The notes beneath the pieces are model-generated. The model was not told where the DNA came from, searched no databases, and worked only from the letters and a program-made list of their open reading frames with translations. A DNA stretch of 53,011 nucleotides, from NCBI GenBank assembly GCA_015520265.1, contig WAQK01000043.1, positions 1-53,011 of the forward strand, written 5' to 3'. Below, in pieces: positions 37,155 to 41,597 of this stretch (positions are counted from its first letter, which is position 1; every line of letters begins with the position of its first letter). The translations under genes and the position numbers were made by a program. This stretch comes from Pyrodictiaceae archaeon (GTDB lineage Archaea; Thermoproteota; Thermoprotei_A; Sulfolobales; WAQK01).

Positions 37155-37252
37155 TGGTAGCCGGGCGGGGATTCGAACCCCGGTCACGGGGGTTCTCCCC
37201 TCGACCACGGAGGGCCAGAGCCCCGCATCCTGGGCCGCTAGACGACCCGGCT
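37155..37252 (-). tRNA. tRNA-Gln (CUG) with a 22-nt intron and encoded CCA
   Basis: The minus strand folds into a full cloverleaf. The acceptor arms AGCCGGG/CCCGGCT match perfectly, discriminator A is followed by encoded CCA, the D arm is GTCT..GGAT, the anticodon stem is CGGGG/CCCCG and the T arm CGGGG-TTCGAAT-CCCCG. The A1-U72 pair is the archaeal identity mark of tRNA-Gln, read by the GatDE amidotransferase. The loop between the anticodon stem strands is 29 nt, so a 22-nt intron is inferred after position 37 and the anticodon is CTG (37216-37218). A TATA-like CTAAAAAC lies about 33 bases upstream. Confidence 0.9.
37193..37214 (-). other. Intron of tRNA-Gln (CUG), canonical position 37/38
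   Basis: These 22 bases interrupt the anticodon loop. They form a 5-bp stem (CCCTC with GAGGG). A strict bulge-helix-bulge could not be drawn with confidence, so the junction may be off by one base or the motif relaxed, as crenarchaeal splicing endonucleases allow. An endA gene is at 43128-43679. Confidence 0.7.
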
Positions 37253-38450: not shown

Positions 38451-38768
38451 CTACTCTATCACCATTATGTTCTCAGGTGGAAACCCCATTTCGGCCAGTA
38501 TCTCCTTGACCCGGTACCTATGGTCTCCCTGAAGCTCTATCCTACCATTCTTAGCGGTGCCGCCAGTCGCCAGTCTTGACTTAAGCTGCGATGCCAGCCT
38601 CTTCAAGTCAACCTCGTGCTCGTCTATGCCCTCGATTATGGTAACCTCCCGGCCCCACTTGCGCTTCTCTAGCCTGATTTTTATCATCTGCTGTTCCTTG
38701 GTTAGCATCTCACAAAGCTCTGGCGGGAGCCCGCCACATATAGATGAGGTGAACCCCTCTTCCATCAT
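38451..38768 (-). CDS. Translation initiation factor aIF1 (SUI1)
   Basis: This small factor (105 residues) binds the 30S subunit and controls start-codon selection. The SUI1 fold is clear in the pattern [21 protein letters not shown] followed by [34 protein letters not shown], with GGTxKNGxIELQG diagnostic. The N-terminal tail with Cys11 and Cys19 is a common archaeal extension. The start is one of two consecutive ATGs (38768 or 38765). It is divergent from rpo12 over a shared palindromic TATA box. Confidence 0.93.
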
Positions 38769-39149: not shown

Positions 39150-40667
39150 GTGCTATGCATGACTGGTTCACGGCATCAGGCTCCAAAAGCGGAGGTTCTC
39201 GCACTACTCCTGGCCGTATTGGCAACCATGCTTCTCCCCTTAACCGTAAATGTTGATGCGCATCTTGACCCACCCGACGACCCGGCGCTGGCCGTCAATG
39301 TGTACCTAAGAAGCCTGGAGCTCCTTCAGGACGAGGACGACGGGGTCGACGGAAACGCGGAGCTCATAATAACCTGGCTGGTCTCGCACGAAGCCCACGG
39401 CTCTGCAGCGGGCGTCATCACTATCGATGACTTTGACTGGGACGTGGAGCAGTCCAGGACTTTGGACGCATATCTTTACGGACATGTTGAGTGCAGCCCT
39501 CTTAACAGGGTGATGCTTGACGTACAGGTTGCGGAAGACGACACAGACCTTGCCACGACGATCGTGGCTGGCGTGGCAGGCGCGGTAGGGGGAGTTGTGG
39601 CAGGATTCCTGACCACCGGGGCCGCCATAGCTGTGGGCGCAGCTGGAGGGGGTTCCGGTCTCGTATCCATGTTTGCCGGTCTCAACGGTGTAGACGATCT
39701 AGGGAGAGCTGCACTCACGGTAACCAGCCCAGGCACCTACAGGCTCAGAGGCCAGGGCTTCGTTGCTGTCCTCGAGGTGACTGTTGCAACAATGAGCGGC
39801 TCGGCCTGTGCCCAGCCGGAACCTGTGCCTGCTGAGCTTCCCGAGGGTGTTGATAGGAGCCTGGATGAAAGGCTGGAGACAGGTCAGAGGAGCTTCGCTG
39901 CACTTAGGGAGGCTGTGCAGCAATCGTCTACAATAGGCTTTGAGGAAGGGAACCCGGCCAGCCTCTCAAATATGGATGTTGCAACCCTGAGGTCGGAGTT
40001 GCCACGTAGAATACTTCTAGGCGAGGTTGACCCGAGGGTCACCATTGCTGTCAAGATGGCCGCCGATCTGTCCGGGGGTTCTAGGCTCTCCCGCGAAGCG
40101 CTGGGAGACCTCTATGCTGCGAGATCCTTGGCGTCCGCTGGGGAGCATGCCTTGTCTCTGGACAGCTACGAGGCCGCATGGATCCTCTCCCTGAAGACGA
40201 TCTTCAGGGTGGAGGCTGCCCCGGCATCGGGGATCACCGTATCTGTGGTCGACGAGGATGGCAGGCCTGTTGACAACGTTGCGGTGGACGTGTATCGTGG
40301 GGACCAGCTGGTTCTTTCCGTGAAGCCGGAGGATGGTAAGGTGGAGAACGTGACCCTGGAGCCTGGCGAGTATATGGTCAGTGTTAAGACGAGGTTCCTG
40401 AGCACTGATGTGGGCCTAGCATCGGCCACGTTTAACGTGGAGGAAGACGCAAACTTAACGGTGGTTGTCTCCTCCATCATTGTACCCGTGAAATGGATTC
40501 CGGCATTAGGGAATCTCATGATATCCCTGTTTTTTGGCCTGTTTTCGGGCCAGCTGGCTGGCAGGGCCGTGGCTGGTAAGAAGGCCGGGACTAGAAGGGC
40601 CGTTGGCCTGGCTGCAGGCCTAGCTGCGCTAGTGTTGTCTTTCGTCATTCTCCAAGGGCTACTATAA
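39150..40667 (+). CDS. Unrecognised secreted/membrane protein with Gly-rich hydrophobic hairpin and Ig-like domain
   Basis: I do not recognise this 505-residue protein. It has an N-terminal signal (about residues 15-37), then an acidic external domain. A long Gly/Ala/Val segment follows (about 130-178, including VAGVAGAVGGVVAG), which looks like a glycine-zipper membrane hairpin. After a helical region comes a carboxypeptidase-regulatory-like beta domain (about 365-440, GITVSVVDEDGRPVDNVAVDVYRGDQ). Two C-terminal membrane helices are joined by a basic loop (AGKKAGTRR). One Cys pair (C108, C230) could form a disulfide. The start is GTG 39150 or ATG 39159, just after the TATA element, so it is probably leaderless. 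It stands alone between rpo12 and uppP. Confidence 0.65.
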   Translation: MLCMTGSRHQAPKAEVLALLLAVLATMLLPLTVNVDAHLDPPDDPALAVNVYLRSLELLQDEDDGVDGNAELIITWLVSHEAHGSAAGVITIDDFDWDVEQSRTLDAYLYGHVECSPLNRVMLDVQVAEDDTDLATTIVAGVAGAVGGVVAGFLTTGAAIAVGAAGGGSGLVSMFAGLNGVDDLGRAALTVTSPGTYRLRGQGFVAVLEVTVATMSGSACAQPEPVPAELPEGVDRSLDERLETGQRSFAALREAVQQSSTIGFEEGNPASLSNMDVATLRSELPRRILLGEVDPRVTIAVKMAADLSGGSRLSREALGDLYAARSLASAGEHALSLDSYEAAWILSLKTIFRVEAAPASGITVSVVDEDGRPVDNVAVDVYRGDQLVLSVKPEDGKVENVTLEPGEYMVSVKTRFLSTDVGLASATFNVEEDANLTVVVSSIIVPVKWIPALGNLMISLFFGLFSGQLAGRAVAGKKAGTRRAVGLAAGLAALVLSFVILQGLL

Positions 40668-40736: not shown

Positions 40737-40803
40737 ATCGTCAGCCCTGCGCGGGCACATCATCGCGCATGTGCTCTGCCCTTTCGAGCCACATCATCCG
40801 TTG
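40737..40803 (-). ncRNA. Candidate C/D box guide sRNA
   Basis: On the minus strand the order is C box ATGATGT (40791-40797), 12-nt guide, D' box CAGA (40775-40778), 11-nt spacer, C' box ATGATGT (40757-40763), 12-nt guide and D box CTGA (40741-40744). Both guides are exactly 12 nt, the classical archaeal spacing. The only departure from the C consensus is the last base, the least critical for the kink-turn, and it is the same in both boxes. A TATA-like GGTAAAAATC (about 40824-40833) is placed to start the RNA at about 40803. Predicted methylation targets would pair with the fifth guide base before D (a G) and before D' (a U). Confidence 0.55.
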
Positions 40804-40841
40804 GTTTATTTATTGCGGCGAGATTTTTACCTTAGTGGTAA

Positions 40842-41597
40842 GTGTTGCTGGAAGCCCTGGCATCTGGCCTGCTGCAGGGCTTGCTGGAGTGGCTGCCGGT
40901 CAGTAGCAGTGGGCAGGTCTCCCTGATACTGATGGGTCTGCTGGGCGTCACGCCCGACTATGCATATAGGTTCTCCCTCTTCCTCCATCTGGGAACAGCG
41001 TTCTCGGCGCTTGTCTGGTTTAGGGATAGGTTGCTGGAGGCCCTGCGTGGCGGCGAGGTTCTGGGCTTCCTAGTCTACAGCTATGTGGCCTCAATGGTGG
41101 TGGGGGGTCCAGTATACCTGGTGGCCTCCGGGCTGGCCGTCGACAGGTTGACCCTAATTATAGGAGTCTTGCTGGTGGTGACGGGTCTGTTGCTGGAGAC
41201 TTCCAGGAAGGGTGGCGGGGCTGGAGGCGTGCCTCGGCCCCTAGACGCCGTCCTAGTAGGTGTTGCTCAGGGGTTCGCGGTGCTGCCAGGTCTTTCTAGA
41301 AGTGCCGTCACCATAGCTGTCCTGGCGCTGAGGGGTTATAGGCCGGAGGTGGCTGTTGAGTACTCCTTCATAGCCTCGATACCGGTTACCCTGACCGCAG
41401 GCCTATATGAGGCGCTTGGCGGCGTGGGGGGCGGGTTAGAGGGCGTGGTGGCGTCGGCAGCGGCTTTCGCTGCTGGTCTTGTATCCATCGGCTTCATGGT
41501 GGGTCTTGCTAGGAGGGTTAGGCTTGGCCCCTTCCTAGTTGCCCTTGGTTTGATCATTCTTGCCCTCTACCTCCCAGTGCTGTCGGGCATAGTTTAA
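40842..41597 (+). CDS. uppP: UppP/BacA-like polyprenyl diphosphate phosphatase
   Basis: This integral membrane enzyme should recycle the isoprenoid lipid carrier used for protein glycosylation and glycan export. The 251 residues have about eight helices. The two signature motifs are present: LLQGLLEWLPVSSSGQ (residues 10-25) and PGLSRSAVT (near 148-156). In bacterial UppP the first motif ends in a catalytic His, which is Gln25 here. The change may be an archaeal variant or may alter activity. The start is GTG 40842, with TTG 40845 as an alternative. The TATA box (GGTTTATTTA, 40803-40812) abuts the predicted start of the divergent sRNA. Confidence 0.85.
   Translation: MLLEALASGLLQGLLEWLPVSSSGQVSLILMGLLGVTPDYAYRFSLFLHLGTAFSALVWFRDRLLEALRGGEVLGFLVYSYVASMVVGGPVYLVASGLAVDRLTLIIGVLLVVTGLLLETSRKGGGAGGVPRPLDAVLVGVAQGFAVLPGLSRSAVTIAVLALRGYRPEVAVEYSFIASIPVTLTAGLYEALGGVGGGLEGVVASAAAFAAGLVSIGFMVGLARRVRLGPFLVALGLIILALYLPVLSGIV

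What the first reader, a model, noticed from the sequence alone, without database searches (positions are those of the whole stretch)
40737..40803. A compact C/D box guide RNA hidden antisense between two membrane-protein genes
The minus strand has C box, 12-nt guide, D' CAGA, 11-nt spacer, C', 12-nt guide and D CTGA in exact archaeal order. The C and C' boxes are identical (ATGATGT), deviating from consensus only in the last base. A TATA element is correctly placed for a start at about 40803, directly abutting the uppP TATA box on the other strand. One caution: the D guide itself contains GCCC/GGGC, which could fold.
Basis: partly seen in the sequence, partly recalled or inferred. Interest (0 to 1): 0.62.

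Follow-up and report, generated by a model that had tools for sequence, protein, structure and literature searches.

The report
Conserved archaeal tRNA-methylation guide RNA gene
The stretch is a real small-RNA gene, present in nearly every archaeon of its class that was searched, that most likely directs methyl groups onto two kinds of transfer RNA (the glutamate tRNA's decoding base and the leucine tRNAs), not onto ribosomal RNA.

Summary
The minus strand at 40797-40741 reads C, 12-nt guide, D', 11-nt spacer, C', 12-nt guide, D. It is the only such arrangement in the window (0 strict, 0.04 loose expected).

It is a C/D box guide RNA gene. A model of the family finds it in 199 of 229 genomes of the class, and in 118 of 122 good ones. 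Boxes and guides are conserved; spacer, flanks and neighbouring genes are not.

The guides have no convincing rRNA site in relatives; own rRNA genes were not found. Both match tRNAs. The D' guide pairs 11/11 with spliced tRNA-Glu(UUC), and the N+5 rule falls on wobble U34. The D guide pairs 11/11 (9 Watson-Crick, 2 G-U) with tRNA-Leu(UAA, CAG, GAG) at the variable-arm/T-stem junction, N+5 on G47. Guide variants in relatives keep the Leu pairing; G-to-A changes improve it while excluding tRNA-Ser. Fibrillarin is encoded.

In a few lineages the D' or D guide has changed and lost its fit. Expression and methylation are not shown. No Rfam family matches above threshold. I rate it a new member of a known kind: a class-wide sRNA with both guides aimed at tRNAs.

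The parts
40741..40797 (-). C/D box guide sRNA gene, C box to D box (mature RNA probably about 40737-40802)
   Evidence: (model R1 match 40739-40800, 58.4 bits)
40791..40797 (-). C box ATGATGT (consensus RUGAUGA, last base deviates)
   Evidence: aligned box in A1
40779..40790 (-). D' guide GGCTCGAAAGGG; nt 2-12 upstream of D' pair with CCUUUCGAGCC of tRNA-Glu(UUC), N+5 = U34
40775..40778 (-). D' box CAGA (consensus CUGA)
40764..40774 (-). internal spacer, 11 nt; 3-27 nt in relatives, some with a hairpin
40757..40763 (-). C' box ATGATGT
40745..40756 (-). D guide GCCCGCGCAGGG; nt 2-12 upstream of D pair with CCUGCGUGGGU of tRNA-Leu, N+5 = G two bases before the T stem (G47)
40741..40744 (-). D box CTGA
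40822..40829 (-). TATA-like stretch TAAAAATC, candidate promoter element (inferred)
   Evidence: AT enrichment at a similar distance in 63 homologues

Best explanation
The site is the gene of a conserved archaeal C/D box guide sRNA. The transcript would fold into two kink-turns (C/D and C'/D') bound by L7Ae, Nop5 and fibrillarin. The D' guide would pair with the anticodon arm of tRNA-Glu(UUC), spliced or unspliced, and direct 2'-O-methylation of the wobble base U34. The D guide would pair with the variable-arm/T-stem junction of most tRNA-Leu isoacceptors and direct 2'-O-methylation of G47. Shown here: the box anatomy, the conservation, the complementarity and register in this genome, and a fibrillarin gene. 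Inferred: transcription, RNP assembly, and methylation at the two bases.
For: Exact architecture, one site in the window against 0-0.04 expected. BLAST homologues in many genomes of the order cover just query positions 44-103 of 143, that is, the sRNA without its flanks. Model R1 finds it in 199/229 genomes of the class, in 118/122 good ones, and in four families outside the order. A pattern scan of about 85,000 species gave 45 Thermoproteota records; the 25 other hits were bacterial or haloarchaeal, and none fits the box grammar. The gene is unlinked to uppP in relatives: in G007, G005 and G017 the two lie on different contigs. For the D' guide every rRNA site in relatives has at least two mismatches. 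D' guide: 11/11 with spliced own tRNA-Glu(UUC), 10 + 1 G-U unspliced, 0 of 400 shuffled guides as good; G010 pairs 12/12. D guide: its best tRNA site (nt 2-12) in five genomes is tRNA-Leu. G-to-A changes in relatives (G003, G002) turn a G-U into A-U with Leu and would mismatch Ser. Both sites obey N+5. Fibrillarin is in the genome.
Against: No RNA or methylation data. The D guide pairing alone is only moderately improbable (20 of 400 shuffled guides score as well) and includes two G-U pairs. tRNA-Leu(CAA) of this genome lacks the site, and tRNA-Leu(UAG) was not recovered. In G008 and G048 the D' guide no longer fits tRNA-Glu; in family f8 the D guide is altered and fits tRNA-Leu poorly. The terminal stem of this copy is only about one base pair. 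The closest relative, G001, lacks a match, but it is 87% complete and also lacks uppP.
Confidence: 0.85

Rival explanations
1. A C/D box sRNA that guides rRNA methylation, as most archaeal ones do.
For: Most archaeal C/D guides with a predicted target act on rRNA (PMC7994747). The D guide has a one-mismatch 23S site in G008.
Against: That G008 site is not found in G010 23S; the D' guide has no site with fewer than two mismatches in sense 16S or 23S of relatives. A first perfect 12-nt hit was to the antisense strand of 23S, an orientation error. Both guides match tRNAs in register.
Confidence: 0.05
2. A C/D box sRNA whose D guide acts on tRNA-Ser (T-stem start GCGCGGGU) rather than, or as well as, tRNA-Leu.
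For: tRNA-Ser(GCU, UGA) pair 9 Watson-Crick + 1 G-U with one mismatch at guide nt 4.
Against: The mismatch sits next to the catalytic position. Guides with A at nt 8 (G002, G003, G039, G064) pair well with Leu and lose Ser.
Confidence: 0.08
3. A C/D-like RNA or relic that is no longer active, or acts by plain antisense pairing without methylation.
For: Weak terminal stem in this copy; D' box deviates (CAGA); guides have changed in some lineages (G008, G048, f8).
Against: The family is detected in 118 of 122 good genomes of the class, with boxes, spacing and guides kept in those read.
Confidence: 0.04
4. Chance arrangement of box-like words.
For: None found beyond the shortness of the boxes.
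Against: Expected 0-0.04 sites per window, and class-wide homologues.
Confidence: 0.005

Closest known systems
Archaeal C/D box sRNAs (sR families; Rfam snoPyro_CD RF00095, sR23 RF01138)
   Same: Box order, spacing, size, N+5 guide register; four of the five weak Rfam matches to the region are archaeal C/D families.
   Different: All below Rfam's gathering score (best 20.3 bits against 45); no Rfam family claims the gene or its homologues.
S. acidocaldarius C/D guidance of tRNA-Gln(UUG) U34 and G18 (cited in PMC7668247)
   Same: C/D guidance of a wobble U34 plus another tRNA position, in a member of the same order.
   Different: Targets here are two different tRNA families, Glu(UUC) and Leu.
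Predicted Pyrococcus furiosus C/D guide for tRNA-Leu(UAA) G47 (snoRNAdb, cited in PMC7668247)
   Same: Same tRNA family and, by my numbering, same position as the D guide here.
   Different: One isoacceptor only; methylation was not detected in the P. furiosus tRNAs analysed; sequence kinship with that sRNA was not tested.
tRNA-targeting sRNAs of Pyrobaculum (Lui et al. 2018, as reviewed in PMC7994747)
   Same: C/D sRNAs that target tRNAs, including position 34.
   Different: There one guide targets a tRNA and the other has no target; here both guides have tRNA targets.
tRNA-Trp intron / sR50 (PMC7994747)
   Same: C/D guidance of a wobble-base methylation (Cm34).
   Different: That guide is a tRNA intron; this one is an independent gene.

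Membership tests
Archaeal C/D box guide sRNA | C, D', C', D boxes in order with 10-12 nt guides directly upstream of D' and D | tested here: met
Archaeal C/D box guide sRNA | Boxes and guides conserved over flanks in related genomes | tested here: met
Archaeal C/D box guide sRNA | Guide complementary to a stable RNA, with the fifth base upstream of D/D' on a defined target base | tested here: met
   tRNA-Glu(UUC) U34 and tRNA-Leu G47
Archaeal C/D box guide sRNA | Host encodes the C/D RNP methyltransferase fibrillarin | tested here: met
   (two overlapping pieces on two contigs; Nop5 and L7Ae not searched)
Archaeal C/D box guide sRNA | Own promoter or transcription | tested here: inconclusive
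   TATA-like stretch at suitable distance, mild AT peak in homologues; no RNA data
Archaeal C/D box guide sRNA | Binding of L7Ae/Nop5/fibrillarin and 2'-O-methylation of the target | not testable with these tools
   needs biochemistry
rRNA-targeting (double-guide) C/D sRNA | Guides complementary to 16S/23S sites | tested here: not met
   in relatives' rRNA; own rRNA genes were not found by the searches
Any Rfam RNA family | Covariance-model score at or above gathering cut-off | tested here: not met

The most novel reading that the evidence does not exclude
A class-wide, nearly universal archaeal sRNA uses both of its guides on tRNAs. It couples wobble-base methylation of tRNA-Glu(UUC) with G47 methylation of the tRNA-Leu set, and individual lineages have retargeted or lost one of the two guides.
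Probability: 0.6. Interest if true: 0.58.

Novelty: new member of a known kind. Interest (0 to 1): 0.5.

Why it matters
Several ribose methylations in Sulfolobus tRNAs have no assigned guide or enzyme (PMC7668247, PMC7994747). This gene gives two exact, testable predictions in nearly every member of the class. It is also an unusual predicted case of one C/D RNA with its two guides on different tRNA families. Its conserved guides and known targets make it a good system for following how a guide keeps or loses its target.

Tried and rejected
(1) rRNA target: a perfect 12/12 hit in 23S proved to be on the antisense strand, because loci from the genome search keep contig orientation; rescanning in sense orientation found none. 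(2) tRNA-Ser as D target: disfavoured by G-to-A guide variants. (3) Retargeting of D' in G008 to tRNA-Ser(UGA) and in G048 to tRNA-Thr(UGU): neither holds up against the tRNAs recovered from those genomes, so their D' target is unknown. (4) Compensatory change of tRNA-Glu for the G003 D' variant: not found; one mismatch remains after splicing. (5) Rfam identification: nothing above threshold. (7) Lui et al. 2018 is not held, so a prior listing of this family there or in snoRNAdb cannot be excluded. (8) Caution on circularity: the 45 GTDB loci were found by their guides, so guide conservation was judged mainly on the BLAST and model searches; the model itself was trained partly on those loci.

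Full report
OBSERVATION. The minus strand at 40797-40741 reads ATGATGT - GGCTCGAAAGGG - CAGA - GCACATGCGCG - ATGATGT - GCCCGCGCAGGG - CTGA. That is C, guide, D', spacer, C', guide, D. A grammar search of both strands finds only this site, against 0.0 (strict) or 0.04 (loose) expected per window in 100 first-order Markov simulations. It lies in the gap between an ORF ending at 40667, which has no Pfam match, and uppP starting at 40842 (BacA, E 1.2e-38). There is no tRNA or Rfam gene at the site. The best weak Rfam matches to it are archaeal C/D families (snoPyro_CD, 20.3 bits against a cut-off of 45).

CONSERVATION. BLAST of the 143-bp region against the order gives matches that mostly cover query positions 44-103, that is, the sRNA alone. 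Homologues from several families keep the four boxes and two guides, while the spacer varies from 3 to 27 nt and the flanks differ. In G007, G005 and G017 the gene is on a different contig from uppP. A pattern scan of about 85,000 species gave 70 records. Of these 45 are Thermoproteota; none of the 25 bacterial or haloarchaeal ones fits the box grammar. A sequence-only model built from 39 homologues (R1) finds a match in 199 of 229 genomes of the class and in 118 of 122 good ones, including four families outside the order. It finds one place in this genome and one in the window, so it is not merely catching any C/D RNA. Forty model-found members were read: 36 of 40 D' guides pair at 10 or 11 of 11 positions with tRNA-Glu(UUC). 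The model was partly trained on guide-selected loci, so it leans toward these guides; the BLAST set is the freer evidence.

TARGETS. Neither guide has a convincing site in sense 16S or 23S rRNA of relatives; the searches found no rRNA genes in the window's own assembly. Both guides have tRNA sites.

D' GUIDE. The own tRNA-Glu(UUC) (G000:C41:9812-9906, 17-nt intron at 37/38) gives CCUUUCGAGCC after splicing, 11/11 Watson-Crick with guide nt 2-12, and 10 + 1 G-U before splicing. The fifth base upstream of D' pairs with U34. None of 400 shuffled guides scores as well on this tRNA set. tRNA-Glu(CUC) has C34 opposite the guide A. In G010 the pairing is 12/12.

D GUIDE. tRNA-Leu(UAA, CAG, GAG) carry CCUGCGUGGGU, 9 Watson-Crick + 2 G-U, no mismatch. 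The fifth base upstream of D pairs with the G before C48 at the junction of variable arm and T stem, here taken as G47. By itself this is moderate evidence (20 of 400 shuffles as good). It is strengthened because tRNA-Leu is the best site for guide nt 2-12 in five genomes, and because changes within the guide core of 40 model-found members keep Leu pairing (exceptions are at the two ends of the guide). G-to-A changes at nt 8 turn a G-U into A-U: G003 pairs 11 + 2 G-U over 13 bases, and G002 has the same change. These changes would mismatch tRNA-Ser, the only other near match.

LIMITS AND EXCEPTIONS. tRNA-Leu(CAA) of this genome has GCCGUCGCGGG and is not a target; tRNA-Leu(UAG) was not recovered. 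In G008 (tRNA-Glu with A37) the D' guide has changed beyond recognition, and in G048 it has an insertion, with no clear new target. In family f8 the D guide has changed to GCCGCGCAGC and fits tRNA-Leu poorly. G001, of the same genus, has no match, but also no uppP, at 87% completeness. The terminal stem in this copy is about one pair. The promoter is plausible only.

MECHANISM. Shown: gene anatomy, conservation, guide-target complementarity with the N+5 register, and a fibrillarin gene (in two overlapping pieces on two contigs). Inferred: a box C/D RNP that methylates the 2'-OH of U34 in tRNA-Glu(UUC) and of G47 in tRNA-Leu. From general knowledge, ribose methylation at 34 stiffens the wobble base for decoding, and one near the T stem would stabilise the elbow of the long-armed tRNA at high temperature.

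COMPARISON. C/D guidance of tRNAs is known: tRNA-Trp C34/U39, tRNA-Gln U34 and G18 in S. acidocaldarius, and a predicted tRNA-Leu(UAA) G47 guide in P. furiosus whose product was not detected. In Pyrobaculum, tRNA-targeting sRNAs are reported to use one guide only. The present RNA is therefore a member of a known kind, with an unusual pair of tRNA targets and unusually wide conservation. A prior listing in sources not held (Lui et al. 2018; snoRNAdb) cannot be excluded.

Noticed in passing
window 37158-37252 (-): tRNA-Gln(CUG) with an intron; ARAGORN reports it as tRNA-??? with a four-base anticodon.
   Followed up: partly
L106 (G000:C91:6100-6400) and L107 (G000:C112:1-400): A 3' half of tRNA-Leu(GAG) with nearly the same downstream sequence as the intact gene on another contig; looks like an integration-site duplication or an assembly edge.
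   Followed up: no
L105 (G000:C41:9812-9906), also G001 and G003 tRNA-Glu: The tRNA-Glu(UUC) intron begins AGC, the same bases as the exon that follows it, so the guide can pair with much the same strength with both precursor and spliced tRNA.
   Followed up: partly
G000 tRNA-Leu(CAA), L224; also G008, G010, G038: The Leu(CAA) isoacceptor departs from the shared CCUGCGUGGG junction in several genomes, so it would escape the guide.
   Followed up: partly
L030, L031, L033, L318, L319: Some members have a long D'-C' spacer that can form a G+C-rich hairpin, an extended form of this sRNA.
   Followed up: no
G000:C15:18583-19014 and G000:C93:9097-9492: Fibrillarin appears as two overlapping pieces on two contigs, a probable assembly break.
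   Followed up: no
window 38451-38768 (-): SUI1/aIF1 translation initiation factor gene near the sRNA.
   Followed up: no
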